From Terriglobales bacterium (GTDB taxonomy: Bacteria > Acidobacteriota > Terriglobia > Terriglobales > Acidobacteriaceae): a DNA stretch of 63,490 nucleotides. The number at the start of each line of letters is the position of its first letter. Within the stretch, counting starts at the first letter, position 1. A program made the translations under genes and the position numbers. Shown piece by piece: positions 25,241 through 44,552 of this stretch. Under the pieces are notes generated by a model. The model worked only from the letters and a program-made list of their open reading frames with translations, was not told the DNA's origin and made no database searches. Location: NCBI GenBank assembly GCA_015654835.1, contig JAATGG010000266.1, positions 1-63,490 on the forward strand. The letters run 5' to 3'.

Positions 25241-26479
25241 TCACGCCGATTCCGATCTCTCTTCCAATTCAGTCATCTGCTGTGAAGGCCGTAGCTGCTT
25301 GAGCAGATTCTTATAAAACTCCGTAGTCATTCGCAGCACATCCCGGTCTACATAATGCTCCAATACCCATGCGCGAGCGGCTCTGCCCATGCTTTGCCGG
25401 CGCTCCGGGTTGCGCAACAAGCATAGTACAGCCTCACAAATAGCCTCCGGATACCCAGGCGGGATGAGCAGGCCTGTGACCTCGGGCACCATTGCATCGC
25501 GAGAACCCGTGCAGAGGGTCGCGATCACCGGGATTCCCGTAGCCCCGGCTTCCAACAAAACATTAGGAAAACCCTCCCGCCAACTCGGCAGAACCATGAG
25601 ATCCATAATCCGGTAATAAGGTGCCGGGTCGGCTACATAGCCGGTGAGACGAATGTGAGGATGGGTGAGGATGCGTATCCGCATTGCATCATCCAGAGCA
25701 TCTTCCGAGGCGTCGAACCAGCCTACCAGCAACAAATAGGTTTTAGGCTGGGCCGCCAGAATCACATCGAAAGCCTCGATCAGCTCCGGAATCCCTTTAT
25801 CGCGCGTCAGCCGTCCCACAAAGCCCAATACCAGTGCGTCCTCAGGCAGCCGATGGTGGCTTCGCAGCTCTTTTGAGCCTGGTCCCGGTGAAAATCGCTC
25901 CACATCGACGCCATTGCTGCTGCCCGACCCCAACATGCATAGCTTGTCCGCAGGCGCAATTCCCATGGAGCGTGCTTCATTTTTCAGACTGGCGCTATTG
26001 CACAGCACGACATGAGCGCAAGCACAGCTCAGACGCTCTGCGGCCCATAGAATTCTCCGCTTTATCCCGGTGCAGGTTTCTAGCTTGAGGCCGCGCAGCA
26101 TATAAACCCGCATGGGAACGCGGGCAATTTTGGATACAAGATTACCCAGCAATCCAGCTTTAGGAGTGCTGAATTCGGTCAAATCCGGATGCAGCCGCCA
26201 TAACAGATACCCCAACCGAATCAGGGATATAAAGTCGGCAAACGGCGCGATGCCGCGCTTCATCGGACAGGAGATCGATTCAACTCCCTCTGACTTGCTT
26301 GTGAGTTCGAGCAAATCTCCGGGGTTCGACACCAGCGTGACCCGAAAACCAGCCTCGCGCAGAGCCCGTAGTCGCCCCGAAAGCACCAAGCAGGTCTGGG
26401 CATCGGTGATGCCTACCACGATGTGGGGGGGGGAGGGGGGGGGCTCGAAAAGAATGTGCGATGGTTTGCCTACAAACAT
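25241..26479 (-). CDS. family 4 glycosyltransferase with a C9-T-C9 tract near the start
   Basis: GT-B fold retaining glycosyltransferase. The N-terminal acceptor domain starts at HIVVGITDAQTCLVLSGRL and includes LREAGFRVTLVSNPGDL. The C-terminal donor domain has LGFVGRLTRDKGIPELIEAF and the E-x7-E motif in REGFPNVLLEAGATGIPVIA. The ATG at 26479 has GAGGG about 11 bases upstream; ATGs at 26564-26566 and 26561-26563 would extend it by about 29 residues of unlikely sequence. Just after the start, codons PPPSPP are encoded by two runs of nine C. Indels there would shift the frame before the catalytic domain. It is the only minus-strand gene of its group, facing nuoN. Donor and acceptor cannot be predicted. 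Confidence 0.88.
   Translation of the reverse strand: MFVGKPSHILFEPPPSPPHIVVGITDAQTCLVLSGRLRALREAGFRVTLVSNPGDLLELTSKSEGVESISCPMKRGIAPFADFISLIRLGYLLWRLHPDLTEFSTPKAGLLGNLVSKIARVPMRVYMLRGLKLETCTGIKRRILWAAERLSCACAHVVLCNSASLKNEARSMGIAPADKLCMLGSGSSNGVDVERFSPGPGSKELRSHHRLPEDALVLGFVGRLTRDKGIPELIEAFDVILAAQPKTYLLLVGWFDASEDALDDAMRIRILTHPHIRLTGYVADPAPYYRIMDLMVLPSWREGFPNVLLEAGATGIPVIATLCTGSRDAMVPEVTGLLIPPGYPEAICEAVLCLLRNPERRQSMGRAARAWVLEHYVDRDVLRMTTEFYKNLLKQLRPSQQMTELEERSESA
26425..26443 (-). repeat. homopolymer pair C9-T-C9 inside a glycosyltransferase gene
   Basis: Plus strand reads nine G (26425-26433), one A, nine G (26435-26443). On the coding strand this is C9 T C9, encoding PPPSPP about 15-20 residues after the chosen start. 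Tracts of eight or more identical bases are prone to slipped-strand length change, and surface-polysaccharide glycosyltransferases are classic phase-variable genes. The length seen here keeps the frame open (ON). Confidence 0.85.
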
Positions 26480-26640
26480 AGATCGTCTGGCCCTCGCAAG
26501 ATTCCTGACTGATTCATCAATTGTCGAGAATCTGCCGACAACGCCTGAGGGCAAAACAAACATCATGACTTCAGATCTTGCAGCCTAACCTTAAGCCCAA
26601 ACTATAGGCATCGAGGTTTACTCTGAAGTTCTTGCATACA

Positions 26641-26673
26641 TTCTTAGTGAATTCAAAATAATGTATCATTATT
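26641..26673 (+). promoter_or_regulatory. AT-rich candidate promoter with overlapping palindrome
   Basis: In the intergenic region between the divergent glycosyltransferases, TATCAT (26664-26669) is a five-of-six match to a -10 box. It is 17 bases from TTCTTA (26641-26646), a weak -35. The palindrome AATAATG-TAT-CATTATT (26657-26673) overlaps the -10, as an operator would. This is pattern matching only. Confidence 0.3.
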
Positions 26674-26747
26674 GCACACCTTAACCGCGCCCCGAGCATC
26701 ATAACTCTTTAGTTATTAGCCGCTTTTCCAATTTCCACTTCAAAGCC

Positions 26748-27887
26748 ATGACTCAGCGTCCCCTGGTTCTCTTACTCATTCCGCATCTAGGCAATGGCGG
26801 CGCCGAGAGAGTTATCGCGCTGCTAGCCTCCAATCTTTCTCCGGAAAAGTATGAGTTATGCCTGGGGCTCGTCACCGAAGGACAAGTTACAGGGGCAGAT
26901 GCTTGTGTTGAACCGCTTCCGGCGTGGGTTCGTGTTTATCCTCTTGGTGCACCGCGAGTTCGTGCGGCAACACGCAGGATTCTCGGGCTGGTGTGGAAGC
27001 TTCGCCCAGACATCATTTTGTCCGGAATGGCCCATCTCAATTTTCTGGTGCTTCTGCTTCGACCTTTCTTTCCGCAGAAAACACGCATTCTGGTTCGGCA
27101 AAATGGAACGGTTTCGGCCCAGTTGGCGTCGGAAGGAATGCCGTTCTACACGCGCATGTTTTATCGCCGGCTTTATCGCCATGCGGATAGCGTGATTTGC
27201 CAAACGCGGTCCATGGCGAAGGATTTGGCGGCAGTGGCCGCGTTACCTGCGAAATTATTAACCGTGTTGCCCAATCCGATTGACGTGGAGGAAATTCGCC
27301 GCGCAACCCACGGGCACTTCGGTTTATGGGCTCAATGGGATGGTCCCGGTCCGCATTTGCTCGCTGTCGGCAGGCTGTCCGCCGAGAAAGGCTTCGATCT
27401 GCTGCTCCAGGCTTTCGCAGTTGTGCGGCGGCGCTTCCCTTCCGCCTGTCTCCTCATTGCGGGAGCTGGTCCGGAAGAAGCGGCCTTATGTGCCCAAAGC
27501 CGCTTACTGGAAGTGAATGCTTCCGTCCGCTTCACGGGACGTATCGTTCGCACGGCCTCCTATTTCCCTGGCGCAACCCTGTTTGTCCTGTCCTCCCGGC
27601 ATGAGGGCCTTCCCAACGCCCTGCTCGAAGCTGCGACTGCCGGACTGCCGTTGGTCGCGTTACCAGCCTCGGAAGGGGTTGCCGACCTGCTGCGGGATCA
27701 GCCGGGCGCCTGGCTTGCGCCCGAGGTCTCAGCCGAGGCGCTGGCGGTCTCGCTGCTGGCAGCGCTCGACAGCCTGCGGCCCGGGGAACGCTTTCCTCAC
27801 CGCTGGATTGAGGAGTTTCACCTCGACTGGGCCATTCACGCCTATGAGCAGCACATCGATGCAATTCTGACTGGAGCACAAAAGTGA
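26748..27887 (+). CDS. family 4 glycosyltransferase
   Basis: 379-residue GT-B glycosyltransferase. The N-terminal domain opens with LVLLLIPHLGNGGAERV, the typical GG-x-ER start of GT4 enzymes. The donor domain has LLAVGRLSAEKGFDLLLQAF, LLIAGAGPEEAAL and the E-x7-E motif in SRHEGLPNALLEAATAGLPLVA. Predicted to add a sugar to a lipid-linked oligosaccharide at the inner membrane face. Its stop overlaps the next glycosyltransferase GTG by four bases, so the two are coupled. Linkage and sugar unknown. Confidence 0.92.
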   Translation: MTQRPLVLLLIPHLGNGGAERVIALLASNLSPEKYELCLGLVTEGQVTGADACVEPLPAWVRVYPLGAPRVRAATRRILGLVWKLRPDIILSGMAHLNFLVLLLRPFFPQKTRILVRQNGTVSAQLASEGMPFYTRMFYRRLYRHADSVICQTRSMAKDLAAVAALPAKLLTVLPNPIDVEEIRRATHGHFGLWAQWDGPGPHLLAVGRLSAEKGFDLLLQAFAVVRRRFPSACLLIAGAGPEEAALCAQSRLLEVNASVRFTGRIVRTASYFPGATLFVLSSRHEGLPNALLEAATAGLPLVALPASEGVADLLRDQPGAWLAPEVSAEALAVSLLAALDSLRPGERFPHRWIEEFHLDWAIHAYEQHIDAILTGAQK

Positions 27888-29026
27888 ACCATGTCGCGTT
27901 CCTGATTCCGACCCTGGACCGCATCGGAGGCGCCGAGCGGCAACTCATCCTGTTGGCCAAAGGACTATGCCGGCGCGGCTGGCGAGTGACCGTCGTGGCA
28001 CTCTCGGGCACAGGCAGCGATGCGGCAGCCGAACTCACTGAGGCAGGAGTGGGCTTTCTAAGCCTTAGGATGCGTAAGGGATTGGCCGATCCGCGTGGAT
28101 GGTTTCACTTCAAACGCTGGCTGGAGCAGGAACATCCCGACGTGGTTCATGCCCACCTGCCCCATGCGGCGTGGCTGGCGCGCTGGTCGCGGCTTGGGGC
28201 GCCGGTGCGGGTGGTGGTCGATACGTTGCATAGTTCTTCGACCGGCAGCTTTGGCCGTTCGTTGGGCTATCGCCTGAGCTCCCGGTTCCCCGACAAAGTC
28301 ACTGCCGTCAGCCGATCGGTCGCGGAGGCACACCTTTTCGCCGGCATGGTCCTCGCGGGCCAGCTTGCCGTGCTGCCCAACGGAGTGGATGTGAGATATT
28401 ATCGCCCGGATGCCGAGGTGCGTAGAGCGTTGAGGCAGAAATCGGGTGTGCAAGAAGGCGAGTTTCTCTGGTTCGCAGCCGGTCGTCTTGAACCGGTAAA
28501 GGACTATCCGACGTTGCTGCGCGCCATGGCCAAGGTTCCCGAGCGGGCACGGCTGGCGATTGCCGGGGGAGGGATACTTGAAAACAAGCTGCGGCAGATC
28601 TCCGCGACCTTGGGACTGACGGCACGAGTCCGCTTCCTGGGCTTTGAGGCCGATGTACGGCCCTGGATGCAAGCCGCCGATGGTTTCGTCCTTTGTTCCC
28701 ATTGGGAAGGGCTGCCGATGGCTCTGCTGGAGGCTGCCGCCTGTGCGCTCCCTGCTGTTGCCACAGATGTTCCCGGCACCCGTGAGGCTGTCGTTCACAG
28801 GCAGACCGGCTTGCTGGCCGCTGCAGGCAGTGAGCAAGCCCTGCAGGAGGCAATGAGCCAGATTATGTCGATGCCGCCCGAGCAACTCCGTGCCATGGGC
28901 AGACAGGCGCGGCAGCACGTCATCGACGGGTTCAGCCTCTCTTCGGCCCTGGACAGATGGGAGAGCCTCTACGAGGCATTGCTCACGGAGAATCCCAAGC
29001 CGCGCCGCTGGGGACGGGCGGTCTGA
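27884..29026 (+). CDS. family 4 glycosyltransferase
   Basis: 380-residue GT-B enzyme, second of a coupled pair. N-terminal AFLIPTLDRIGGAERQLILL, then DVVHAHLPHAAWLARW and TAVSRSVAEAHLF typical of GT4. Donor domain: FAAGRLEPVKDYPTLLRAM, LAIAGGGILENKL, VRFLGFEADVRPWMQAAD and SHWEGLPMALLEAAACALPAVAT with E-x7-E. GTG start at 27884 overlaps the previous stop. Its end is nine bases from the convergent deacetylase, with no terminator visible between. Role in exopolysaccharide repeat assembly is inferred from context. Confidence 0.92.
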   Translation: MNHVAFLIPTLDRIGGAERQLILLAKGLCRRGWRVTVVALSGTGSDAAAELTEAGVGFLSLRMRKGLADPRGWFHFKRWLEQEHPDVVHAHLPHAAWLARWSRLGAPVRVVVDTLHSSSTGSFGRSLGYRLSSRFPDKVTAVSRSVAEAHLFAGMVLAGQLAVLPNGVDVRYYRPDAEVRRALRQKSGVQEGEFLWFAAGRLEPVKDYPTLLRAMAKVPERARLAIAGGGILENKLRQISATLGLTARVRFLGFEADVRPWMQAADGFVLCSHWEGLPMALLEAAACALPAVATDVPGTREAVVHRQTGLLAAAGSEQALQEAMSQIMSMPPEQLRAMGRQARQHVIDGFSLSSALDRWESLYEALLTENPKPRRWGRAV

Positions 29027-29035
29027 AAGATCCAA

Positions 29036-29797
29036 TCAAATGCGGTGCCGCAATCGTTTTCGGGCTCGGGAAGCGAGGAAGCGCCACAACACCATCTTCG
29101 CTCTCAAGTCTTCCATGATCCCCAGCCTTTGCGGTTTAAACTCCCTCAGAACCCGCTCCACGGAAGTGAACTTCGCCGCATGTTGACCGAGGAAGACGCG
29201 CAGTTGCTCAACCTGGCTGTTGCGGGCGGAATTGCTATGGATGCAGATGGTCCATAGACCCTGCGACTTCGCTACCGGCTCCCAAAGCTGCTGGGGAATC
29301 CAGACGACTCCTCCGCGGGTGAAAGGAACACGCGCCAATCCATCCGAGAGCACGCCGATTCCCTCCTGACGAAGCGCCAGCAAGGTATTGCGATCGAAGC
29401 CGTGGCGAGGCGCGACCCATATCCGAGGATCGAGCCCGTGGCCGCGAAGAATCTTCAGACCAGACGAAATCCACTCGCGCTGTTTCTCTTGGGGAACGCC
29501 GGCAAACTCCGTTTTTCGATGCAGCGGCAGCCATCCGCGGGCTTCGCTGTTATTCAGGTGCCGATAGCCGTGCAAAGCGATCATGGCCCCTGCCGCCTCA
29601 AGGGCGCGCATTTCCGCCCAGAAGTCCGGCGACGGCGGTGAAAACTCAAGCTCGCGATCCCGATTGTCGGGAACGACAGCCAGAATGGGTTTGATGCCGA
29701 ACTCTGCGATCAGAGGGACAAAACGTCGCCAGCGGTCGGCCGCGAACGTTGGGCAGAGATCGTCGAAGCGCAAAAGATATTGTGCGGGCCGGTTCAT
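29036..29797 (-). CDS. NodB-like polysaccharide deacetylase
   Basis: 253-residue protein of the polysaccharide deacetylase superfamily, nearest to the DUF2334-type group. Motif 1 is LRFDDLCPTF (Asp-Asp for metal and catalysis) at the very N-terminus. Motif 2 is ALHGYRHL, matching the metal-binding H-x3-H. Later WVAPRHGFDRNTL and WTICIHSNS may supply further catalytic residues. No signal peptide, so it would act in the cytoplasm on a nucleotide- or lipid-linked precursor, or be exported another way. The ATG at 29797 overlaps the flippase stop (ATGA). It is the last gene of the minus-strand export operon. Confidence 0.85.
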   Translation of the reverse strand: MNRPAQYLLRFDDLCPTFAADRWRRFVPLIAEFGIKPILAVVPDNRDRELEFSPPSPDFWAEMRALEAAGAMIALHGYRHLNNSEARGWLPLHRKTEFAGVPQEKQREWISSGLKILRGHGLDPRIWVAPRHGFDRNTLLALRQEGIGVLSDGLARVPFTRGGVVWIPQQLWEPVAKSQGLWTICIHSNSARNSQVEQLRVFLGQHAAKFTSVERVLREFKPQRLGIMEDLRAKMVLWRFLASRARKRLRHRI

Positions 29798-31170
29798 CCC
29801 TGTGTCTCCGCTGCCGCTTTCGGGAGGAGTTTTTCGGCCCAGTAGCAAAGAAAACAAAACGTGCTCACCGTCCACAGCGAGGTGGCCAGAGCGATTCCGG
29901 CTACGCCGAACCATCGCATCAGCAGCAGGTTGAGGAAGATATCGAGCACCAGATTGAGAGTGCCGCAATAAAAGATCAGATCGGTGCGGCGCATGGCCAC
30001 CAGAAAGCGGTAATAGACGCGGCTGGAAACGAAGAACGGAATCTGAATGGCATACATGGCTAACACCGGAGTGACCACTGCCGTGTCGGATGCGCCAAAG
30101 GCCCCATGCTGAAAAGTGACCCGGATCAGCCAATGCGCGCCCCCGATCAGCGCCAAAGCAATCGGCGCGGAAACGATTGCCGTGAGCCGGACCCAGGTGC
30201 GCAGAGTCCGCCGGCAGCCTGTCCAGTCTTCCCGCGCAATCATGCGGGAGAAATAGGGCACCACCGCCGTCGAAACCGCGCCGCCCAGCAGCGTGAGCGC
30301 GACGGTAACAAAGCGTCCGGCATAGACCAGCGCCGAGACGCTTCCGGCAGGCAGCGCAGCGGCCATCGACTGATCGACCAAAAGCCCGCCCGAGGCTACT
30401 ACACTGCTCAGCAAGACCGGCCCATACTGATGCGCGACCTCCCGGCTGGCAGCGTCCATCTTATGCCAGTGCAACCGCAAGCGGTATCCGTGCGCATCCA
30501 TCATCCACGACACCAGAACGGCGTGCACCAGGGCTCCCGCCAGGGTGGCATAAACCAGAGCCCAGATGCCGAACCGGCGGCCCAGCAGCAAGGCGCCGGC
30601 CATGACCATCAGCGGATTCGCAATGGGCGCCAAAGCAGGCACGGCGAAGCGGTCGAATGTATTCAGCACGGCCGTGCAGTTGGTCGCGATTCCGGTTATC
30701 AGCACCAACGGCAGCAAGGCGTAAAACACATGCACCGAAAGATCCAGCTTGGGTGCGGAAAAGTGCGAACCGATGAGAGGAAAGAAGCTGCGCGCACTGA
30801 GAGCCATCGCCGCCGACCCGGCCACCAGCAGCAGACACATCCACGCCATCGAGCTTGAGAGCAGCCGCTGCGCAGCTTCATGGCCTTGCTGTTCCCTTAC
30901 CCGCACCAGCGTGGGGACAAGCGCCTGATTCATCGATTCCGAGATCAGGTTGATCAGGAGCCCGGGAATGAGCGCCGCCGCCAAAAAGGCGTCCATTGCA
31001 TCGGTGCGTCCGTAGACGCCGGCTACCGCAAACTCCTTGAACGTGGCGGCAATTTTGACCAGAACACCCGCCGCCGTAACTGAAGCGGCGGCAATGAGGA
31101 TATGACGGTTGGTGCTGGTCCCTCTCAGCCGCCGGGCAGCTTGCAGAATGGCGGCTATCGGCGCGCTCAC
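29794..31170 (-). CDS. MurJ/MviN-type lipid-linked oligosaccharide flippase
   Basis: 458-residue membrane protein with about 13-14 helices. The segment FKEFAVAGVYGRTDAMDAFLAA followed by NLISESMNQALVPTLVRV (cores EFAVAGVYG and ALVPTLV) is the MurJ/MviN pattern. QHGAFGASDTAVVTPVLAMYA also fits. Position between a ligase/polymerase and a deacetylase in a polysaccharide operon argues for a dedicated polysaccharide flippase rather than the housekeeping lipid II flippase. Coupled by ATGA overlaps at both ends. Confidence 0.85.
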   Translation of the reverse strand: MSAPIAAILQAARRLRGTSTNRHILIAAASVTAAGVLVKIAATFKEFAVAGVYGRTDAMDAFLAAALIPGLLINLISESMNQALVPTLVRVREQQGHEAAQRLLSSSMAWMCLLLVAGSAAMALSARSFFPLIGSHFSAPKLDLSVHVFYALLPLVLITGIATNCTAVLNTFDRFAVPALAPIANPLMVMAGALLLGRRFGIWALVYATLAGALVHAVLVSWMMDAHGYRLRLHWHKMDAASREVAHQYGPVLLSSVVASGGLLVDQSMAAALPAGSVSALVYAGRFVTVALTLLGGAVSTAVVPYFSRMIAREDWTGCRRTLRTWVRLTAIVSAPIALALIGGAHWLIRVTFQHGAFGASDTAVVTPVLAMYAIQIPFFVSSRVYYRFLVAMRRTDLIFYCGTLNLVLDIFLNLLLMRWFGVAGIALATSLWTVSTFCFLCYWAEKLLPKAAAETQG

Positions 31171-32396
31171 CCGGCCGTCCGAAGAGAGTGCCTCGCGTGC
31201 GGCACAGGCTCGTCCTCCGTGTCACTTTGGAAGCACGCGGCAAGTTCTTCCGGCGCTTCCTCGGCCAGCCTCCCTGCCAGGGCGATGAGCGCCAGCAGCA
31301 GCCAGGTTGTCCGATTCTCCTCCACAGTGGCGACCAGGGAACTGATCCCCCAAATCAGCAGCGCCGTGGTCATCGCCATCTGCAAAGCTCCTCTGGTTCT
31401 GAGAATTGCGGACGCGACAAACGCAAAGACCGCCGTGGCGAGGAGCAATGCGACGATTCCTCCGCCGACCAGGATCGATAGCGCGGTATTGTGGGCGGTA
31501 TCGGCAGGCGCCAGTCCAGCGGCTTCCACAAAGGTGCCTGCGCCTGTGCCCAGCCAAGGCGCTTGCACAAAGGCGTGCCAGCCGGCGATCCAGATATTGG
31601 CCCGCTGATTCAGGTTGCCCCCTCGCAGTTGTTCATAGAGCGTGCCCAGCCGTTCTATGGTTGCGACGGGAATGGCGAACCAGGCAGACGCCGCAAGGAC
31701 GGGCAGGCCCAGGGCAGCAAGCAGCACGCCATGCTTTGCCCGCCGCATCAGCAGGACGCCGCAGCCCACCAGAGCGACTACTGCGGCCACGAAGCCTCCA
31801 CGCGAGGCCGTCAGCAGTACCGCGATCAGCCCCAGCGGCAGGTAGCCCCAGGCGAGCAGGCGGCCCGGCCAGCGCGGCTCCGCCGACAACAGCAGCGCCG
31901 CCATGGGAAATCCAAGATCGAGAAAACGGGCGACATCGTTCGGGTCCTGCCCTTCGGCCGCAAACCGGATCTGGCTGACGCCGGCCCCTCTCGTCGAGAC
32001 AAGATTGGCAACCGTCAAAATGGCCAGCACCCACGAACCGGCCACATAGGCCCGCAACAATGTACGTAAGTCGCGAGGAGTTTCCGCGAACTCCCACACT
32101 GCCCAGACGATCATCATCACCTGGAAGTAGGCGCGTAATGTTCCCAGAGTCTCTACCGGATCGATCGTCCAGAAATAGGTGCAGCATAACCACAGATAGA
32201 GAGTCACCATCAGCCAATGCAGCGGGCCGGGAGTGCGCCAACGACCGCGCTGCCACACCGCGAGAAGCGCTACCGGAATCAGAATCAGTCCTACGACGCG
32301 GGCAATATTGCCCAGGGAACCGCCTAGTTCCAGGGAGTATTCCCACGGAATCGTGAACGCCAGAAATACCAGCAGCCACCAGGCAATCTTCCTCAT
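31167..32396 (-). CDS. O-antigen ligase/polymerase family membrane protein (Wzy/WaaL-like)
   Basis: 409-residue membrane protein with about 11 helices. Features of the O-antigen ligase family: a large periplasmic loop, ANIWIAGWHAFVQAPWLGTGAGTF, then HNTALSILVGGGIVALLL with the conserved His. The ATG at 32396 gives MRKIAWWLLVFLAFT, a natural first helix; the frame extends to 32498 but that part is inside the preceding gene. In a Wzx/Wzy-type locus it would polymerise or ligate repeat units in the periplasm. It overlaps the flippase by four bases and lies 17 bases after the export fusion. Polymerase and ligase cannot be told apart here. Confidence 0.82.
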   Translation of the reverse strand: MRKIAWWLLVFLAFTIPWEYSLELGGSLGNIARVVGLILIPVALLAVWQRGRWRTPGPLHWLMVTLYLWLCCTYFWTIDPVETLGTLRAYFQVMMIVWAVWEFAETPRDLRTLLRAYVAGSWVLAILTVANLVSTRGAGVSQIRFAAEGQDPNDVARFLDLGFPMAALLLSAEPRWPGRLLAWGYLPLGLIAVLLTASRGGFVAAVVALVGCGVLLMRRAKHGVLLAALGLPVLAASAWFAIPVATIERLGTLYEQLRGGNLNQRANIWIAGWHAFVQAPWLGTGAGTFVEAAGLAPADTAHNTALSILVGGGIVALLLATAVFAFVASAILRTRGALQMAMTTALLIWGISSLVATVEENRTTWLLLALIALAGRLAEEAPEELAACFQSDTEDEPVPHARHSLRTAG

Positions 32397-32413: not shown

Positions 32414-34945
32414 CTAGAACCTTTGCGAATAGACCAGTCCCGCGTAGATCGACACCCCGAGCGCCGATTGGATCGCCGACTCCATCGTTTTGTTCCACAG
32501 GTTTTTTGCTGCGGAGTCGGGCAGGTACAGAATGTCGCGGTCGTGAATCGGCTGGTCGGGATCCTGGCCGTGCAGCATCCGCTTCACGTTAAGGGTCGTC
32601 AGGGTGCGCCCTCCCTTCTGCTCGCGAATCAGCAGGGCTTTGCCGGTGGCCGCGTTTGCTGTCGGTCCCCAGGCGAGCGAAAGCGCTTGTACTACCGTAA
32701 GCCCCTGCGCGGGATCTACGGGAAATCCGCCTGGCCGGATCACATCGCCGATAACGTACACCAGACCGGCCCGGCTTACCTGGACAGTGTCGCCGGGAGT
32801 CAGCTCCGGATTGTGGTCTGCGCCGGTGGCGGTGCCGCTCGGATCGAGCACTACCGGGTGCGGCGTCTCCGGATCGCCACGGCGAAAGATATTCACCAAG
32901 CGCCCCGCCGACGGCGACAGACCGGATGCCGCGGAAATCAGATCGAGCAGCCGGTGGTGCAGGGTGAAGGGATAGACCCCGGGCCGCGTGACCTCCCCCA
33001 ACACGCTGACATCCTGCCCCGCATACACCATCACCTGCACAGAGACCTGTGGATGCAGCAACATGCCCTGGGTCAGCAGGGCAGCCTCGATCGCCTGGGC
33101 CGCAGTTTGCTCCGTCATTCCGCCGATCTGGATCTCTTTCACCAGAGGGAGCGTGACCGTGCCGCTGGCGGAGACACGCGCTATCGAGTGGAACTCCGGG
33201 GTGTGAAACTCGCTGATGTCGAGAAGGTCTCCAGGGCCGATGGGAGCCGCCATCTGCGAGCGAACCGCCGCTGCCGTGGGCAGCCCTGTCTCGGGTGCCG
33301 GGCCAGCCTCGTTCCATACCGCGGGAGCTTCCTTGGGATTCGGCACAGTCCTGGGCGCGGGCGTGGAAGGAAAGTGAGCCACGCCGCTGGGCAATCCCGA
33401 GGTGCTCGGCGTAGGCGCCTGGCAATACGCCCCAGCGCAGGCCAGAAGCAATGCCAGCAGCGCCGCCGATGCGGGAAACGATGTCGAGCCCGGATGAACG
33501 TAATCCATCAACACAGCGCCCCCCAGAGCCAGCCACAGGCTGGCAAAAAAAGTAATGGCGAGATAGAGGGGCGGATTGGGTGCGACCGGCTTAATGGGCT
33601 GGCGAGCATAGTCCACCACCGAAATCGTCGATACGTGGATACCATCCAGCAGCCCCGCCTCTTCGACCCTCCCCAGCACCCGCAGGTAGAGCTGGTGGCT
33701 TGCATCGGCTTCTCTGCGCATCACCGCGTACTGCATGGAGGCTTTGTTCAGGGGCATGGCTTCCGCAGTGCGTTCGTCCAAGCTCTTTCGCACCATCTGC
33801 TCGCGATCGACAGCCGTTTGCAAAGCGCGATGAAACCGCTCCAGCAGCCTGCCGTCTTCCGTTTTGATCTGCCGGTCCAGGTCCTGCAACTGCTGCCGAA
33901 TTTCGACGACCCTGGGAAATTCAGGTCCGTGCTCCGTGCTGAGCTGGGCCAGTTCCTGATCGAGGTCGCTATGGCGTGCATGAAGCTGCTGCAGCAATGC
34001 GGTCGCAAAGGTACCGGCATCGGCCTGCATATGAGGGTCCGAAGCCAAGACCAATTCCGGATCACCCCGGGAGGCTGCGCGGTATTCGGCTTCGCGCAGG
34101 ATTCGGTCTGTCGTCGCAGCTACCTGCTGCCGGCCCAGTTCGTCGATCTCCAGCAATACGGATGCATGCTGGCTCTCGCCTTGCTCGCCGTTGGCCAGCA
34201 TCTCCGGCGTGCTCACAATCCCATGCTGCTGCTGGAATGTACTCAGCCGCAGTTCATCCAGATCCCCACGGTTCTTCAGCTCTTTGAGCTGTCCCTGTAC
34301 CCAGCCCGAAGCCTCCGCTGTGGCTTGCTGACGGGTTTCACTCTCCTGCTGCCCGTAGGCGCGAATCAGCGCATTGACCACTGCGGCTGACAACGCCGCA
34401 TTCCTCGAACGGAAACGAATATCGATCAGCAGCGTATGAGGCAAACTCTGAACATGAAGGCGCTTTTGATATCTCTCCAGCAGGTAGGCTTGCGCCGTTG
34501 GCGTGGGTGCGTCGATGTGGAAATCGGGAAAATGCCGCCGAAAACTGCCTTGGAAGCCAGGGGTGTCGTAGAGGCGAAGCTCGGCAATCACCCTCCAGGC
34601 CAGCCGGTCACTGCGGAAGGTGGTGGCCAGCGTCTCCAGTTGCAGAGGGGCGGAGAGGACCGTGGCCGCTGCCGTCGCCTCGGGGGGGCCCATGCTTAGC
34701 GCCGGGTTCGGAGCCGTGCCCAGGGCGACCCTGCCGCTTGCTTCGTATTCGTTGGGTGCGAAAAGGCAATACAGAATACACAGCGAGAACAGGCCGACCA
34801 CGACGGAGATCACCAGGCGGCGATGGCGAATCGCAGTCTCCCCCATCGTCCGTAGTGAGGACGATGGACTGGACCGGCCTGCTGCCTGCGGCTGCGGATC
34901 GAGCGCGCGATATGAATCATGCGGAACAGCAGAAGGATCCGGCAA
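32414..34945 (-). CDS. fusion of Wzz/GumC-type polysaccharide co-polymerase and Wza/GumB-type export protein
   Basis: 843 residues. Residues 40-480 form a polysaccharide co-polymerase: TM1 about 44-62, a long periplasmic region rich in Gln/Leu coiled coil (about 200-420), then PIKPVAPNPPLYL and TM2 about 459-479. No Walker motifs or tyrosine-rich tail, so no BY-kinase domain. A third hydrophobic stretch (493-508) contains LLAC at 500-503, a good lipobox. After a Pro-rich linker, residues about 566-655 match the Poly_export domain (IGPGDLLDISEF, GTVTLPLVKEIQIGG, DVSVLGEVTRPGVYP), followed by one or two SLBB-like repeats (VYVIGDVIRPGGFPV). Usually these are two genes. The frame is continuous, with no sign of a lost stop. 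First gene of the minus-strand export operon. Confidence 0.88.
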   Translation of the reverse strand: MPDPSAVPHDSYRALDPQPQAAGRSSPSSSLRTMGETAIRHRRLVISVVVGLFSLCILYCLFAPNEYEASGRVALGTAPNPALSMGPPEATAAATVLSAPLQLETLATTFRSDRLAWRVIAELRLYDTPGFQGSFRRHFPDFHIDAPTPTAQAYLLERYQKRLHVQSLPHTLLIDIRFRSRNAALSAAVVNALIRAYGQQESETRQQATAEASGWVQGQLKELKNRGDLDELRLSTFQQQHGIVSTPEMLANGEQGESQHASVLLEIDELGRQQVAATTDRILREAEYRAASRGDPELVLASDPHMQADAGTFATALLQQLHARHSDLDQELAQLSTEHGPEFPRVVEIRQQLQDLDRQIKTEDGRLLERFHRALQTAVDREQMVRKSLDERTAEAMPLNKASMQYAVMRREADASHQLYLRVLGRVEEAGLLDGIHVSTISVVDYARQPIKPVAPNPPLYLAITFFASLWLALGGAVLMDYVHPGSTSFPASAALLALLLACAGAYCQAPTPSTSGLPSGVAHFPSTPAPRTVPNPKEAPAVWNEAGPAPETGLPTAAAVRSQMAAPIGPGDLLDISEFHTPEFHSIARVSASGTVTLPLVKEIQIGGMTEQTAAQAIEAALLTQGMLLHPQVSVQVMVYAGQDVSVLGEVTRPGVYPFTLHHRLLDLISAASGLSPSAGRLVNIFRRGDPETPHPVVLDPSGTATGADHNPELTPGDTVQVSRAGLVYVIGDVIRPGGFPVDPAQGLTVVQALSLAWGPTANAATGKALLIREQKGGRTLTTLNVKRMLHGQDPDQPIHDRDILYLPDSAAKNLWNKTMESAIQSALGVSIYAGLVYSQRF

Positions 34946-35183: not shown

Positions 35184-35552
35184 TTAACTTGTGCATAAAT
35201 TAAAGCCAGGGTAAACATCATGAAAGATGAGTTTATCTAACTCGACCTGCCGGACTGAGTCCGTGATAATCGGCCCCGCGGACAAGTTGCATAGCTGCCT
35301 GAAGACTGCCTCCGGAGCCAAAGAGGCCTGAGCGACGAGATCCTTTAACAATTCATCGATATATGCCCAGTGGGTCTCGGCAATTTGCTGCCTCATGTCC
35401 CGCAGGGCATATATCTTCACCGTTCCATGATCTTGTACGGCCAGCAAAACCGCGATTCCGGCCGAGTCCACTATCGAGCCCGCACCACAATATTTAAGCG
35501 TACAGATAGTCGCGCTTAAGTCCGAGAGGGGTGTGTTCAAAGCATCCGCCAT
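35184..35552 (-). CDS. unknown partner protein downstream of the HipA-like kinase
   Basis: 122 residues, ATG at 35552, overlapping the kinase 3' end by 59 bases in another frame. Family not recognised. The N-terminus TICTLKYCGAGSIVDSAGIAVLLAV (cores TLKYCGAGS and AGIAVLLAV) looks like a small alpha/beta core; the remainder is helical with many acidic residues (YIDELLKDLVAQASL). No signal peptide. The large overlap suggests strict co-translation with the kinase. A role as substrate, antitoxin or regulator of the kinase is guesswork. The 238 bp between it and the export fusion show no gene. Confidence 0.6.
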   Translation of the reverse strand: MADALNTPLSDLSATICTLKYCGAGSIVDSAGIAVLLAVQDHGTVKIYALRDMRQQIAETHWAYIDELLKDLVAQASLAPEAVFRQLCNLSAGPIITDSVRQVELDKLIFHDVYPGFNLCTS

Positions 35553-36345
35553 GATTCGTCTTCGCGTGTTCTACCAAACCAGGCATGGAGTGAATCATAT
35601 TCTTCACGAGTACAGGGTTTGAAATTCGCTGCATGCAGCGTTGAAAACGCAAGAGCGCCGTGGGAGTTTTCCATTCATCCGGCAAGCTGCTTACGACGTC
35701 GTCAAGTCTTTTGGACGCAATAGCTTGAATCGTCCTCTGAATATCTTCGATATCCTCTGCGCCGATTTCAGAATAGATGCGAGGGTCGAGGAATCTGGAG
35801 GCCAGCAAGTTAGGAGAAGCAGTGCCATCCGCACCTCCGAAGAGATGACCGTGATCCAGGAAATAGGCCTCAAGCCAGCGGGTCTTCCGCTCAACAAAGA
35901 TGGCTTGGCGATTGTCGGCGTGCTCACAGAGCGCGTCCAGAACCCAAGCTGTCCAAAAATCCCTGCGGTTGCGGATGCGAGAAAACCGGCTTCCCGGCAG
36001 TATCTCAAATAAGGGGCAGTTTCCTACACTTAAAAATCGGGAGCCGAAACACCAGCCCGCTCTCGGTCTGCGTGGCCCCTCTTCTCTCTGTACCCAGGAT
36101 TCGTAATTCCGGTCCAGGAAGCCGTTTGAAAGGTAGACGAAGTTCCATTCTGGAACCGGCAGTCCAGCCAAAGCAAACAATTCGGTTCCTAAGGCATCGT
36201 TGAACGGTATGTTGGGGCCCTGAAAGTTATCAAGAAATTTAATGACGTAAAAATTGCCGTCGCTCGCCGAAATTAGAATCGGTTGCGATCCCCCCCGCAG
36301 TCTCCGGATGTACTGCAATGCTGCAACATGCTTGATCTGTCTCAT
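35494..36345 (-). CDS. HipA-like kinase domain protein
   Basis: 283 residues. The N-terminus HVAALQYIRRLRGGSQPIL, ASDGNFYVIKFLDNFQGPN and NDALGTELFALAGLPVPEW match the HipA_2-type kinase-like family (Gly-rich loop, Lys in VIKF, Glu in TELFAL). Later LDALCEHADNRQAIF has the D-x2-x2-H-x-DNRQ pattern that resembles the catalytic loop, and LDHGHLFG resembles the metal-binding DHG motif. The ATG at 36345 begins at the domain edge; a frame from 36420 adds unlikely sequence. It is not a classical HipBA module: no HipB-like helix-turn-helix gene is next to it. Base composition is less GC-rich than the neighbours, which suggests transfer. Confidence 0.72.
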   Translation of the reverse strand: MRQIKHVAALQYIRRLRGGSQPILISASDGNFYVIKFLDNFQGPNIPFNDALGTELFALAGLPVPEWNFVYLSNGFLDRNYESWVQREEGPRRPRAGWCFGSRFLSVGNCPLFEILPGSRFSRIRNRRDFWTAWVLDALCEHADNRQAIFVERKTRWLEAYFLDHGHLFGGADGTASPNLLASRFLDPRIYSEIGAEDIEDIQRTIQAIASKRLDDVVSSLPDEWKTPTALLRFQRCMQRISNPVLVKNMIHSMPGLVEHAKTNHGGCFEHTPLGLKRDYLYA

Positions 36346-36857
36346 CTCGTTGTGTCCCGATCTCTTCCGTCGAAAAAAACGTCCTTGGCAATACACAGAG
36401 ACTGGAAAGAAGATAAACACGCAAAGAATTCAGTGAAACACTGTCGTTCCGCAACCTACGTGCGAGCTTTGCCGACGTCGATTTTTCTCGTTTAGGCAGA
36501 TTAATGCTGCAACCGCCAAGACGGGAATATTCGCGTCAATCTGTATTGGATCGGATTCCCTAAAAATCCGACGCTCGCATCGCAACAACCCGCAGAGGGG
36601 CGCTTTTGCCCAAGATGCGTCAAATTCACACACTTCGGCAGGCGCATTTTTCTTCAGGATGCTGTAATTGGATTTTCTTTATTTCCACGAAACCTTGTCT
36701 ATACAACTTTTGAACTATTTATCTTAATGGAATCTTTATTCAGGAAATAAATCTGTGGAAATGCCGTTTAGGTCCGGAAATCTGCCTCGGCGAATTTCCT
36801 CGGGCCGAAAGGGGCATGAACAAACCCAAACGGCCCAAATCACTCGATCGTCCATCC
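36346..36857. other. AT-rich non-coding region upstream of the HipA-like kinase
   Basis: 512 bp without a convincing gene. It is clearly richer in A+T than the surroundings, especially 36660-36760. Short ORFs exist but show no protein-like pattern. GGAAAT (36776-36781) and ATTTCC (36794-36799) form a weak hairpin 59 bp downstream of the epimerase stop that could end that transcript. The AT-rich part may contain the kinase promoter. Confidence 0.45.
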
Positions 36858-40501: not shown

Positions 40502-41638
40502 CTAAGCGCAAGCGAGTAGCTTATGCAGAGTTTCTGTCCACTCGTCGAGTTCCGCCGCGGGCACACATTCTCGATTCGAATGCGCGGTGTGCATATCGCC
40601 GGGGCCGATTACGATGACCTCTTCGGCAACGTGAGCCAGGCGGCTGGCTTCCGATCCAAAACTGATGCCGATGGGCTCGCGCGCGATGGGCGCAGTCACG
40701 GCAAGCCGTTGACGCAGCGGACCTGCCGTCGCAGGGGCGAAGCCCGCCTCTGCGCGCAGCGGTTCCACATGAATACGCGCCCGCGGATGCTCGACGCGTA
40801 TCCGGTCCGCCAGCCACTCCAACCCAGCCAGTGCCGCCCGCGGAGCGTCACCGGGGATCGGCCGCCACTCCACCAGAAACGAGCACTCCCGGGCCACGAT
40901 ATTTTTCGCCGAACCGCCCTGGATGACGCCAACGTTCAACGTGGTCTGCGGCGGATCGAACAACTCATCCGTAGCGGCAGCAAACTGCGACAGCTCGCTC
41001 TCGATGCGCGCAATGAATTTGGCCGCCAACACAATCGCCGAAAGCCCTTCCTGCGGATAAGCGGAGTGCGCTTCAAGGCCGTTGATCCTGACTCGCGCCA
41101 GACCATATCCCTTGCCCGCAATTCCCGGCCGCAGCGAGGTAGGCTCACTCACAATCGCCGTGCGGATGCGCAGAGTTGTCCCGGCCAGCAGACGCTCCAT
41201 CCCTTTGCAGCCAATCTCTTCGTCCGCAGTCAGAATCAGGGCTGCGTTCGGCCAGACATGCTGCGGCTCGAAGCCCTCCAGCGCCGCCAAAAAGCAAGCC
41301 AGCGCACCCTTCACATCACAGGCTCCACAGCCGTGCAGCAATGGCTTCTCGTCCGAGGCAGTCAACTTGAGAGCGTCCGTCCATGCCTCCGCAAACGGCA
41401 CCGTATCCGTATGGCATACGAAGGCCAGATCAATCACGCCGGCGGTCCCTGACGCACCGGCGGGCCGCGCAATCAGATTGGCTTTGGCTACACCGTTCTC
41501 ATCCGTATAGGGGAACAACTCGACCCGCCAGCCTCGTGCTTCGACAAAGCCGGTGACCCACGACAGCAGCGGCAGATTCGACAACGCCGATGGCGTGGCA
41601 ATGGCAACCAATTCGCGCAGAATCTCCGCAGCTTTCAT
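40502..41638 (-). CDS. M20-family amidohydrolase (ArgE/DapE-like) in the hut operon
   Basis: 378-residue zinc hydrolase. Metal ligands: VCHTDTVPF (His-x-Asp), HGCGACDVKGALA (Asp), LTADEEIGCKG (Glu-Glu), and a late His in GDMHTAHSNRE. The ArgE family normally cleaves N-acyl amino acids. The ATG at 41638 overlaps the hutI stop by four bases, so it belongs to the histidine operon. With HutF present the pathway ends in N-formylglutamate, and no HutG is seen; this enzyme may deformylate it. Acetylornithine deacetylase activity is the alternative. No arginine gene is nearby. Confidence 0.85.
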   Translation of the reverse strand: MKAAEILRELVAIATPSALSNLPLLSWVTGFVEARGWRVELFPYTDENGVAKANLIARPAGASGTAGVIDLAFVCHTDTVPFAEAWTDALKLTASDEKPLLHGCGACDVKGALACFLAALEGFEPQHVWPNAALILTADEEIGCKGMERLLAGTTLRIRTAIVSEPTSLRPGIAGKGYGLARVRINGLEAHSAYPQEGLSAIVLAAKFIARIESELSQFAAATDELFDPPQTTLNVGVIQGGSAKNIVARECSFLVEWRPIPGDAPRAALAGLEWLADRIRVEHPRARIHVEPLRAEAGFAPATAGPLRQRLAVTAPIAREPIGISFGSEASRLAHVAEEVIVIGPGDMHTAHSNRECVPAAELDEWTETLHKLLACA

Positions 41639-42885
41639 TGCGTCACTTCCTTACCTGCAACAAAGACACGCGGCCTGGCCGGGGCTGCGACAAAGTACGC
41701 AATCTCTCGGTAGTCGGTGAACTCATGTAAAAGGAAATCGGCCTGTTTGCCTATTTCGAGAGAGCCAATCGTGTCGCCGAGGCCCAGGCTCCACGCCGCA
41801 TTGAGGGTGGAGGCGGTAAGCGCCTCAGCCGGCGACAATCCCATTTCAAGACACGCCAGAGAAAGCATGAAAGGCATCGACGCCACCGGCGACGATCCCG
41901 GGTTGAAGTCCGTAGCCAGCACAATCGCGAGCCCTGCTTCAACCATCTTGCGCGCCGGCGGATAGTTCGTCCGCCCCAGCGCGAACACCGACCCCGGCAG
42001 CAGCACTGGCTGCACGTTTGCCGCCCGCAACAGGCCGAGCGTCTCCTCGGTCACCGTCTCCAGGTGATCGGCAGTCGCTGCGCCCAGCTCCGCCGCCAAT
42101 GCCGCTCCGGTGCCGGGCCTGAACTGCTCCGCGTGGAGACGCAGCCCCAGTCCGTGTGCGCGGGCCGCAGTCAACACGACCCTCGTTTCATTCACCGTAA
42201 AGGCATGGTCGTCGCAAAACGCATCGCAATATTCCGCCAATCCGGTGGCAGCGACTTCGGGAATCAACGCTTCGACCATCCAGCGAATATACTCATCGCG
42301 CCGATTTGTAAACTCGGGCGGAACCGTATGCGCCGCCAGCAAAGTGGAAACGATGCGTGCCGGCCCCTCGTTGTTGAGACGCGCCTGCACACGCAGCATC
42401 CGCAGTTCCGTCGCATCGTCCAACCCGTAGCCGGACTTGGCTTCGATCGTGGTTGTACCTCCGCGCAGCATCCAGTCGCGATGCCGCCGCGCCATCGCGA
42501 GCAACTGGTCTTCACTGGCTGCACGCGTGAGCGCAACCGTACGCAAAATTCCGCCGCCCGCTGCGGCAATCTGCTGATAGGTCGCGCCTGCGATACGCTG
42601 CTCGAACTCCGCCGCACGGTTGCCGGCAAACACGAGGTGGGTGTGCGCGTCCACAAATCCAGGCGTGACGCAACGCCCTTCGGCATCGACCACCGTCGCC
42701 TGTTTCGGAATCCGCGTGCGCAACTCCGCATCACGACCGACAGCAGCGACGCGGCCACCTTTCACCAGCAGCGTCGCGTCTTCGATCACATTAAGCTCGC
42801 GCAGCTCTGTGCCAACGCGCGGGCGCTGAGGACCGGCCAGCGTAACAAGCTGGCCGATGTGAATGACTGCAACTGTGCCGGCCAC
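41635..42885 (-). CDS. hutI: imidazolonepropionase HutI
   Basis: Third step of histidine degradation: opens imidazolone propionate to N-formimino-L-glutamate. 416 residues of the amidohydrolase superfamily. Metal site FVDAHTHLVFAGNR; substrate loop TTTIEAKSGYGLD; further ligands in LHAEQF and ATDFNPGSSPVASMPFM. The frame continues far upstream through hutU, but homology starts at VAVIHIGQLVTL. I take the GTG at 42885, two bases after the hutU stop. Coupled to the M20 hydrolase downstream. Confidence 0.94.
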   Translation of the reverse strand: MAGTVAVIHIGQLVTLAGPQRPRVGTELRELNVIEDATLLVKGGRVAAVGRDAELRTRIPKQATVVDAEGRCVTPGFVDAHTHLVFAGNRAAEFEQRIAGATYQQIAAAGGGILRTVALTRAASEDQLLAMARRHRDWMLRGGTTTIEAKSGYGLDDATELRMLRVQARLNNEGPARIVSTLLAAHTVPPEFTNRRDEYIRWMVEALIPEVAATGLAEYCDAFCDDHAFTVNETRVVLTAARAHGLGLRLHAEQFRPGTGAALAAELGAATADHLETVTEETLGLLRAANVQPVLLPGSVFALGRTNYPPARKMVEAGLAIVLATDFNPGSSPVASMPFMLSLACLEMGLSPAEALTASTLNAAWSLGLGDTIGSLEIGKQADFLLHEFTDYREIAYFVAAPARPRVFVAGKEVTQ

Positions 42886-42887
42886 GG

Positions 42888-44552
42888 TTACTTCCCTGCC
42901 ATTGGAATATGCACGCCGCGCTCTCGCGCCGTCTGCTGCGCGAGTTCGTAGCCCGCATCCGCATGACGCGCTACGCCCAGTCCTGGATCGTTGTTGAGTA
43001 CGCGGGCAAGACGCCGCGCCGCATTGTCCGTTCCATCGGCCACGGTAACCTGCCCGGCATGGAGCGAGAATCCCATGCCCACGCCGCCCCCGTGATGGAA
43101 GCTGACCCACGTTGCGCCCGAGGCCGTGTTCAACAGCGCATTCAATACCGGCCAATCGGCGACAGCATCCGAGCCGTCGATCATCTTTTCCGTCTCGCGG
43201 TAAGGACTGGCTACCGACCCTGTATCCAGGTGGTCGCGGCCAATCGCGATCGGCGCGGAAATTTCGCCCTTGCGCACCAGGTCGTTGATGGCCTCGCCCA
43301 TGCGCTGACGCTCTCCGTAGCCAAGCCAGCAGATGCGCGCAGGCAAACCCTGGAAGGCAAACCGGCCCTTTGCCAGCCGCAGCCACCGGGTAAGAATCTC
43401 GTTCTCCGGGAATAACTCCAGAGCCAGTCGATCGGTGCGATCGATGTCTTTGGGATCGCCCGACAAAGCTACCCAGCGAAACGGCCCCGTGCCGGTGCAG
43501 AAGAGCGGCCGAATGTATTCCGGCACAAACCCCGGAATCAGGAATGCTTCGCCGCAGCCGGCGTCAAACGCGAAACGGCGAATGTTATTGCCGTAGTCGA
43601 AAGCCACGGCACCGGCGCGCTGCATGGCCAACATGGCATCGACGTGCACCACCATGGTTGCCGTGGAGCGGCGCACATATTCCTCGGGATCGCTTTGCCG
43701 CAACGCGGTGGCTTCGGCGAGAGTGAGCCCTTGGGGAACGTATCCATTCAACGGATCGTGCGCGCTGGTCTGATCCGTCACGACATCGACTTCGACGCCG
43801 CGCCGGACTAACTCCGGCAGCACATCGGCGCAGTTGCCGACCAGGCCCACTGACAGGGCCCGCCCTTCGCGCTTGGCTGTTTCGCACAGCGCCAGCGCCT
43901 CGTCAAGATTCTCCGTCACTTGATCGCAATAGCGTGTCTCGACGCGCCGGTCGATGCGGGTGCGGTCCACATCGATCGCCAACACCACACCGCCGTTCAA
44001 CGTAACGGAAAGCGGCTGCGCACCGCCCATGCCGCCGACGCCGCCGGTGACCACGAGCTTGCCCTTCAGCGATCCGCCAAAGTGGCGCTCGGCCAGTGCT
44101 GCAAAGGTCTGGAACGTGCCTTGCAAAATACCCTGCGTGCCGATGTAGATCCAGCTTCCCGCGGTCATCTGGCCATACATCATCAGGCCCTTGCGGTCGA
44201 GTTCGTTGAAGTGCTCCCAGTTCGCCCACTTGCCCACCAAGTTGGAGTTGGCGATGATCACGCGTGGTGCCATATCGTGCGTGGGAAACACGCCCACCGG
44301 CTTGCCCGATTGCACCAGCAGCGTCTCTTCGTTGCCCAACTGCTCCAACTCGCGCACGATGGCGTGATAGCAGTCCCAGTTGCGCGCCGCCTTGCCGATG
44401 CCGCCGTAAACCACCAGATCCGAGGGGCGTTCCGCCACTTCGGGATCGAGGTTATTCATCAGGCAGCGCAACGCCGCCTCCTGCTGCCAGCCTTTGCAAC
44501 GCAACTGGTTGCCGCGAGGGGCGCGAATCATAGGAGCTGCCAATACGCTCAT
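42888..44552 (-). CDS. hutU: urocanate hydratase HutU
   Basis: Second step of histidine degradation: urocanate plus water to imidazolone propionate, with NAD as electrophile. 554 residues, normal. Visible features: [21 protein letters not shown] at the N-terminus (core [12 protein letters not shown]), NAD loop [26 protein letters not shown], active-site Cys in [14 protein letters not shown], and [13 protein letters not shown] near the end. The ATG at 44552 overlaps the hutF stop by four bases. No histidine ammonia-lyase gene (hutH) lies in the window. Confidence 0.97.

What the first reader, a model, noticed from the sequence alone, without database searches (positions are those of the whole stretch)
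32414..34945. Single-chain fusion of the polysaccharide co-polymerase and the outer-membrane export protein, with a lipobox at the joint
Seen: an open 843-codon frame with a Wzz/GumC-like part (two membrane segments, coiled coil) then a Wza/GumB-like part (Poly_export plus SLBB). Known: these two proteins contact each other across the periplasm and are almost always separate genes; Wza-type proteins are often lipoproteins. The joint holds a third hydrophobic segment with LLAC (500-503). Inference: either a permanently tethered trans-envelope conduit, or a polyprotein cut by lipoprotein signal peptidase to give a 1:1 pair. Both would be new ways to build this machine.
Basis: partly seen in the sequence, partly recalled or inferred. 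Interest (0 to 1): 0.8.

Follow-up and report, generated by a model that had tools for sequence, protein, structure and literature searches.

The report
Fused polysaccharide exporter with internal signal
In a group of soil bacteria, the inner-membrane and outer-membrane halves of a sugar-polymer export channel are made as one protein with an internal secretion signal, probably so that the cell's signal peptidase cuts it into a matched pair.

Summary
The 843-codon frame is real, on the minus strand (32414-34945). It joins a Wzc/Wzz-type polysaccharide co-polymerase (PCP, residues ~29-485, no kinase) to a Wza-type export protein (OPX, ~560-843) that includes the C-terminal helix corresponding to Wza's pore helix. 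It is not an assembly error: one uninterrupted frame crosses the joint in 72 genomes (window included) of three genera of one Acidobacteriota family, two of them single-contig. It sits in a conserved Wzx/Wzy-type locus.

The lipobox does not hold: Cys503 occurs in 7 of 46 homologues. What is conserved looks like a signal peptidase I site: a short hydrophobic run (median 14 residues), a small residue at -1 (61 of 62) and Gln at +1 (62 of 62). Conservation jumps at that Gln. Separate OPX proteins of the phylum show [AGS]-Gln after their signal peptide in 34 of 36, and none has a strict lipobox.

Best reading: a polyprotein inserted by two PCP helices plus an internal OPX signal peptide, then cut by signal peptidase I into equimolar PCP and OPX. 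An uncleaved tether is not excluded. Cleavage and function are inferred, not shown. My paper searches found no description of such a fusion.

The parts
32414..34945 (-). PCP-OPX fusion gene, 843 codons (TTG start uncertain)
   Evidence: open frame; full-length homologues in three genera
34760..34822 (-). TM1 of the PCP half, residues 42-62
   Evidence: helix H42-62 in the model; PCP fold match 29-484
33575..34759 (-). periplasmic PCP part, residues 63-457 (long coiled coil; GNVR domain 408-477)
   Evidence: Pfam, model, Wzc match
33497..33574 (-). TM2 of the PCP half, residues 458-483
   Evidence: helix H458-483; uncharged run median 21 residues in 62 fusions
33428..33472 (-). internal signal peptide h-region, residues 492-506
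   Evidence: 15-residue helix H492-506; uncharged run before the site median 14, range 0-19
33437..33448 (-).
   Evidence: Cys503 in 7 of 46
33419..33430 (-). proposed signal peptidase I site A-Y-C|Q, residues 506-509
   Evidence: Gln at +1 in 62 of 62; -1 is Ala 45, Gly 15, Cys 1 (window), Pro 1
33380..33421 (-). conserved start of the proposed mature OPX, residues 509-522 (QAPTPSTSGLPSGV)
   Evidence: mean commonest-residue frequency 0.89, against 0.47 in the h-region before it
33260..33379 (-). linker, residues 523-562, mostly disordered in the model
   Evidence: pLDDT under 50 at 508-535 and 540-562
33032..33244 (-). Poly_export (PES, Wza D1-like) domain, residues 568-638
32513..33010 (-). 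SLBB-type region (Wza D2/D3-like), residues 646-811
   Evidence: SLBB two stretches, SLBB_2 644-723; Wza match 563-811
32420..32512 (-). C-terminal helix, residues 812-842, corresponding to the Wza pore helix (D4)
   Evidence: helix H812-842; aligned to Wza up to residue 376
31167..32396 (-). Wzy_C / O-antigen ligase family protein (ATG at 32396 taken as start by eye; the ORF listing gives GTG at 32498)
   Evidence: Pfam PF04932; beside the fusion in 10 of 10 loci
29794..31170 (-). MurJ-like flippase (candidate Wzx)
   Evidence: Pfam PF03023; similar gene in 8 of 10 loci
29036..30133 (-). DUF2334 (polysaccharide-deacetylase-like) protein; start uncertain
   Evidence: Pfam; similar gene in 9 of 10 loci
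25241..29026 (.). three GT4 glycosyltransferase genes (25241-26566 minus; 26748-27887 and 27884-29026 plus)
   Evidence: Pfam

Best explanation
The gene encodes a polyprotein of a kinase-free polysaccharide co-polymerase and a Wza-type outer-membrane exporter, in a Wzx/Wzy-type exopolysaccharide locus. The chain enters the inner membrane through the two PCP helices. A third, short hydrophobic segment restarts translocation, and signal peptidase I cuts after it, ahead of Gln509. This leaves the PCP (about 56 kDa) in the inner membrane and frees an OPX of 335 residues (about 35 kDa), starting QAPTPSTSGLP, into the periplasm. The OPX would form a ring with its own alpha-helical outer-membrane pore and dock on the PCP ring as Wza docks on Wzc. 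The fused gene fixes a 1:1 ratio of the two. A possible origin is a PCP-kinase gene followed directly by an OPX gene, with loss of the kinase domain bringing the OPX signal peptide in behind TM2. Shown here: the fused frame, its conservation, both folds (predicted), the cleavage-type pattern, no kinase match in the protein, and no BY-kinase match on the window's contig. Inferred: the cut itself, the oligomer, the pore, the 1:1 benefit and the origin.
For: Gln at +1 in 62 of 62 fusions; small residue (Ala/Gly/Cys) at -1 in 61 of 62; uncharged run before the site median 14 residues against 21 for TM2. Conservation 0.32 (stub), 0.47 (h-region), 0.53 (site), then 0.89 from residue 509. Separate OPX proteins of the phylum show [AGS]-Gln after the h-region in 34 of 36 (shuffled mean 17.6, maximum 27) and no strict lipobox. 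In 20 stretches of one complete genome of the genus plus the window, Gln follows [AV]xA in 11 of 34 matches in signal-peptide-like c-regions against 3.2% of 1,937 elsewhere. The third segment is needed by topology, since a PCP ends in the cytoplasm (established for the family). Fold matches to Wzc and Wza. Masses.
Against: The window has Cys at -1, unique among 62, and no Lys/Arg in the loop before the segment (also true of L030; 44 of 46 have one). L038 has Pro at -1, a poor signal peptidase I site. Strict AxA holds in only 12 of 46; -3 is Leu in 10 of 46. No trained signal-peptide predictor was available. Internal signal peptides after two helices are uncommon in bacteria; the precedent I know (FbcH) is recalled, not documented here.
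Confidence: 0.7

Rival explanations
1. Uncleaved tether: the third segment stays as a membrane helix and PCP and OPX remain one chain, giving a permanently joined trans-envelope conduit that would not need kinase-driven assembly and disassembly.
For: The frame is never separated at the joint in the 72 genomes counted. The linker (about 54 residues, disordered) could span the periplasmic gap if extended (own estimate). No kinase in the locus, whereas in E. coli the kinase domain is reported to drive Wza-Wzc assembly (PMC12881504, section read). The window's own site (Cys at -1) is atypical.
Against: Invariant Gln and small -1 residue at the joint, short hydrophobic run, and the conservation step at Gln509 are hard to explain without a cut. 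Recalled from the Wza crystal structure: the N-terminal stretch of mature Wza packs along D3 and D2 towards the outer membrane, which would leave too few residues to reach the inner membrane if the fused OPX does the same; its linker is disordered in the model, so this was not tested.
Confidence: 0.18
2. Lipoprotein route: signal peptidase II cuts before Cys503 and the OPX is a lipoprotein like E. coli Wza.
For: LLAC is present at 500-503 in the window. A loose pattern matches 6 of 46. Wza is a lipoprotein (stated in PMC9601211, passage).
Against: Cys503 in 7 of 46; strict lipobox in 2 of 62 fusions, not the window, and in 0 of 36 separate OPX proteins.
Confidence: 0.03
3. Two products by internal translation start: the OPX is also, or only, made from a start codon just before the third segment.
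For: 41 of 46 fusions have at least one ATG, GTG or TTG in the stretch between the end of TM2 and the h-region, though such codons are common by chance.
Against: L016, L024, L051, L052 and L053 have none there, and 23 of 46 have no ATG there (listing). A separate start would not need the reading frame to stay fused.
Confidence: 0.05
4. Assembly or sequencing error that joined two genes.
For: The window lies in an assembly of 280 contigs; two relatives carry interrupted copies.
Against: 72 genomes in three genera share the joint, two of them single-contig (G002, G055). Neither interrupted copy breaks at the joint: G056 has a stop in the coiled coil and a frame change after the signal peptide, G047 breaks at an unknown base in the SLBB region.
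Confidence: 0.01

Closest known systems
E. coli Wza-Wzc capsule export complex (PDB 9r64 series; PMC12881504)
   Same: Both halves match by fold: Wzc over residues 29-484, Wza over 560-842.
   Different: Two genes in E. coli; Wza is a lipoprotein; Wzc has a cytoplasmic tyrosine kinase. Here one gene, no conserved lipobox, no kinase.
GumC/GumB of Xanthomonas (xanthan) and EpsF/EpsE
   Same: A PCP of about the same length without a kinase (GumC 479 residues in a table seen) paired with an OPX. NCBIfam best hits of the two halves are EpsE and the eps_transp/EpsF models, all below cut-off.
   Different: Separate genes; GumB lacks Wza's full length (232 residues).
Separate PCP-kinase plus OPX pairs of the same phylum (L150, L151)
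   Same: Nearest to both fusion halves by mean tree distance; PCP upstream of OPX; same [AGS]-Gln signal peptide end.
   Different: Two genes with a kinase domain between the PCP and the OPX.
Class-3 / D1D2 OPX with beta-barrel partner (PMC9601211, PMC9603273; 9n9a)
   Different: This OPX is longer and has a C-terminal helix aligned with the Wza pore helix, so a barrel partner is not expected (inference).
FbcH cytochrome b/c1 polyprotein (recalled, not found)
   Same: Recalled: a membrane protein and a secreted partner made as one chain and cut at an internal signal peptide.
   Different: Unrelated proteins.

Membership tests
Polysaccharide co-polymerase (PCP) | Two TM helices flanking a periplasmic alpha/beta base with extended helices | tested here: met
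PCP-2a (Wzc type) | Fused cytoplasmic BY-kinase domain | tested here: not met
   No kinase domain in Pfam or in the matched part of the NCBIfam models; TM2 is followed by about 8 residues, then the third segment
Outer-membrane polysaccharide export (OPX) protein | Poly_export (PES) domain followed by SLBB domains | tested here: met
Wza-type OPX with its own alpha-helical pore | C-terminal amphipathic helix (D4) in the outer membrane | tested here: inconclusive
   A helix 812-842 is predicted and aligned to Wza up to residue 376, but confidence falls to 46-71 at the end and membrane insertion was not tested
Lipoprotein (signal peptidase II substrate) | Conserved lipobox Cys | tested here: not met
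   Cys503 in 7 of 46; strict lipobox in 2 of 62, not the window
Signal peptidase I substrate | Short h-region then small residues at -3 and -1 | tested here: met
   -1 Ala/Gly/Cys in 61 of 62; -3 Ala/Gly/Ser/Thr/Leu/Ile in 60 of 62 (Met in 2); strict AxA only 12 of 46
Signal peptidase I substrate | Actual cleavage | not testable with these tools
   Needs protein data
Wzx/Wzy-dependent locus | Flippase, Wzy-type protein and glycosyltransferase genes together with PCP and OPX | tested here: met
   MurJ-like flippase, Wzy_C protein and three GT4 genes beside it. Whether the Wzy_C protein is a polymerase or a ligase is not settled

The most novel reading that the evidence does not exclude
The chain is not cut: fused subunits form one covalent conduit from the inner membrane to the outer-membrane pore, a kinase-free and permanently assembled version of the Wza-Wzc machine.
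Probability: 0.17. Interest if true: 0.85.

Novelty: new variant of a known kind. Interest (0 to 1): 0.6.

Why it matters
How PCP and OPX rings find each other and keep matched numbers is not settled, and in E. coli the reported answer involves a kinase cycle (PMC12881504). Here the kinase is missing and both parts are on one chain. That gives a natural test of whether kinase cycling is needed, and a ready source of a 1:1 complex for structural work. It also offers a bacterial polyprotein with an internal signal peptide, in which one can ask whether signal peptidase I acts inside a multi-spanning protein, and whether blocking the cut yields a working covalent conduit.

Tried and rejected
Lipobox: rejected on conservation. 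Assembly artefact: rejected. Internal start codon as a general route: not conserved. Other long Poly_export frames in the window's genome (C202, C124, C99): the parts held in L002, L003 and L005 match Poly_export and SLBB only, no Wzz or GNVR, so they are not further fusions of this kind. A pre-fusion version of the same locus: the Wzy_C query found nothing in 30 genomes without the fusion, so the ancestral state was not seen. Plasmid collection: 197 records match the protein; the one record where a place covers at least 80% (Mitsuaria sp. 7) is two annotated genes, epsF and epsE; I saw 25 of the 197 rows. The first structure job, with 46 close sequences, was poor in the OPX half (mean pLDDT 66.9) and was followed by the 114-row job. 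A first cleavage-site script gave Gln at +1 in 17 of 36 separate OPX proteins, with no site found in 3; I judged it too crude by eye and replaced it, which asks only for [AGS]-Gln after the h-region (34 of 36). Searches scored only the best 2-3 candidates per genome, and no phylum other than the window's own was searched except through the plasmid collection, so absence outside three genera is not proven. The FbcH precedent could not be documented. The 2009 OPX/PCP review is not held, so an earlier mention there cannot be ruled out. Paper searches for a PCP-OPX fusion; no listing that I saw, and no passage that I opened, describes one.

Full report

NOT AN ARTEFACT. Of 58 same-genus relatives examined, 46 carry one frame across the joint, one copy is interrupted (G056), one is cut by a contig end (G049) and ten have no full-length match (G007, G024, G028, G033, G034, G039, G044, G046, G054, G057). 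The family search adds two more genomes of the genus, three of genus g31 and fifteen of g72 (one of these, G312, is split by contig ends but crosses the joint); the order search adds five of the genus, and shows two more of the genus without it (G400, G416). With the window this makes 72 genomes in three genera, counted by hand from the printed tables. Two are single-contig genomes (G002, G055). In 396 genomes drawn from the phylum, 4 matched at this threshold, all of the window's genus and the window's own genome among them. Searches scored only 2-3 candidates per genome, so absence elsewhere is not proven. The 14 named records found are Acidobacteriaceae, Acidobacteriales or Acidobacteria, one of them labelled Terracidiphilus sp..

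THE JOINT. In 46 aligned fusions Gln509 and Pro511 are invariant, while position 503, the Cys of the proposed lipobox, is Gly in 25, Ala in 9 and Cys in 7. With 16 more fusions, 13 of them from g31 and g72, Gln is at +1 in 62 of 62, and -1 is Ala 45, Gly 15, Cys 1, Pro 1. The window is the one with Cys; L038 is the one with Pro. A strict AxA holds in 12 of 46 and -3 is Leu in 10 of 46. A strict lipobox occurs in 2 of 62; a loose one in 6 of 46. The uncharged run before the site has a median of 14 residues (range 0-19) against 21 for TM2, and the model gives it a 15-residue helix. Conservation, as mean frequency of the commonest residue over 62 fusions, is 0.32 in the stub after TM2, 0.47 in the h-region, 0.53 at the site and 0.89 over residues 509-522. 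A conserved mature end that begins at the predicted cut is what one expects of a cleaved signal peptide.

CALIBRATION. In 40 loci with separate genes, 36 gave an OPX; 34 of these 36 have [AGS]-Gln in the 17 residues that start at the last three of the h-region, against a shuffled mean of 17.6 and maximum of 27, and none has a strict lipobox. An earlier, stricter-looking script gave Gln at +1 in 17 of 36. In twenty 20-kb stretches of one single-contig genome of the genus plus the window, Gln follows [AV]xA in 11 of 34 matches in signal-peptide-like c-regions, and in 3.2% of 1,937 matches elsewhere. So Ala-Gln is an ordinary signal peptide end in these bacteria, and the joint carries it. Gene calling for this test was crude (longest open frames; 323 frames, 68 candidates).

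TOPOLOGY. After TM2 a PCP chain is in the cytoplasm (established knowledge of the family), so a further translocation step is needed to put the OPX in the periplasm. The third segment can supply it. Lys or Arg occur in the loop before it in 44 of 46 fusions; the window and L030 have none there. Start codons in that loop are not conserved: five of 46 (L016, L024, L051, L052, L053) have no ATG, GTG or TTG in it, and 23 of 46 have no ATG. This speaks against a general internal start.

LOCUS. Next to the fusion lie a Wzy_C/O-antigen-ligase family gene, a MurJ-like flippase, a DUF2334 protein and three GT4 glycosyltransferase genes. In 10 loci compared by tblastn of window genes, a Wzy_C relative is beside the fusion in 10, a flippase relative in 8, a DUF2334 relative in 9 and the epimerase in 9; nuoN is within reach in 6 and the unknown 495-residue gene in 7. 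The Wzy_C protein is found in 14 of 14 tested genomes that carry the fusion whole, in part or interrupted, in 0 of 30 genomes without it, five of them of the same genus, and in 0 of 5 further same-genus genomes without it, these five being 69-87% complete. So the fusion and its locus come and go together.

NO KINASE. No kinase domain is matched in the protein. In five fusion-bearing genomes, the window's included, the matches to the BY-kinase family TIGR01007 lie on other contigs or more than 150 kb away. In E. coli the kinase domain is reported to drive Wza-Wzc assembly (PMC12881504: abstract and two sections read). GumC, 479 residues, is an example of a PCP without room for a kinase (table passage in PMC4443731).

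ORIGIN. Among 36 separate-gene loci with both parts, 24 have PCP upstream of OPX and 12 the reverse. Both fusion halves are monophyletic in FastTree trees of 26 sampled fusions (support 0.97 and 0.80). By mean distance the closest separate PCP and the closest separate OPX come from the same two loci, L151 and L150, where the PCP-kinase gene is directly upstream of the OPX gene. This fits loss of the kinase domain with joining to the OPX signal peptide. Against it, the PCP tree puts L131, which has the other order, as sister of the fusions with support 1.0 (midpoint rooting), and the distances are large and close to each other. I hold the origin as a suggestion.

MECHANISM. I think signal peptidase I cuts before Gln509 and yields an equimolar PCP and OPX (0.70). 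The uncleaved tether (0.18) is the main rival; the lipoprotein route is unlikely (0.03).

NOVELTY. I found no description of a PCP-OPX fusion in the open-licence library: searches, with passages seen in PMC9603273, PMC9601211 (one section read), PMC7112194, PMC12004946 and PMC4443731. The 2009 OPX/PCP review is not held, and supplementary files could not be opened, so earlier notice is possible. The parts are known kinds; the joining, the internal signal and the missing kinase make it a new variant.

Noticed in passing
L164-L183 (20 stretches of G002), window; separate OPX genes in L115-L154: Signal peptides in this Acidobacteriota genus often end in Ala-Gln: Gln after [AV]xA in 11 of 34 c-region matches against 3.2% elsewhere, and [AGS]-Gln in 34 of 36 separate OPX proteins. 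PMC5837995 (abstract and passages seen) describes such a Gln rule as specific to Bacteroidetes and does not mention Acidobacteria in its main text.
   Followed up: partly
33380-33421: The first residues of the proposed mature OPX (QAPTPSTSGLP-GV) are among the most conserved of the protein (0.89) although the model leaves them disordered; no role found.
   Followed up: no
35494-36420: A 308-residue protein with a weak, below-cut-off HipA-like kinase match lies upstream of the fusion in the window; it was not sought in the other loci.
   Followed up: no
40502-45931: A histidine-utilisation cluster (hutI, hutU, hutF) with an ArgE-like deacetylase gene; the hutI frame is 583 residues with its HutI match only from residue 201.
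   Followed up: no
L055 (G056) and L054 (G047): Two relatives have interrupted copies of the fusion: one with a stop in the coiled coil and a frame change after the signal peptide, one broken at an unknown base in the SLBB region.
   Followed up: partly
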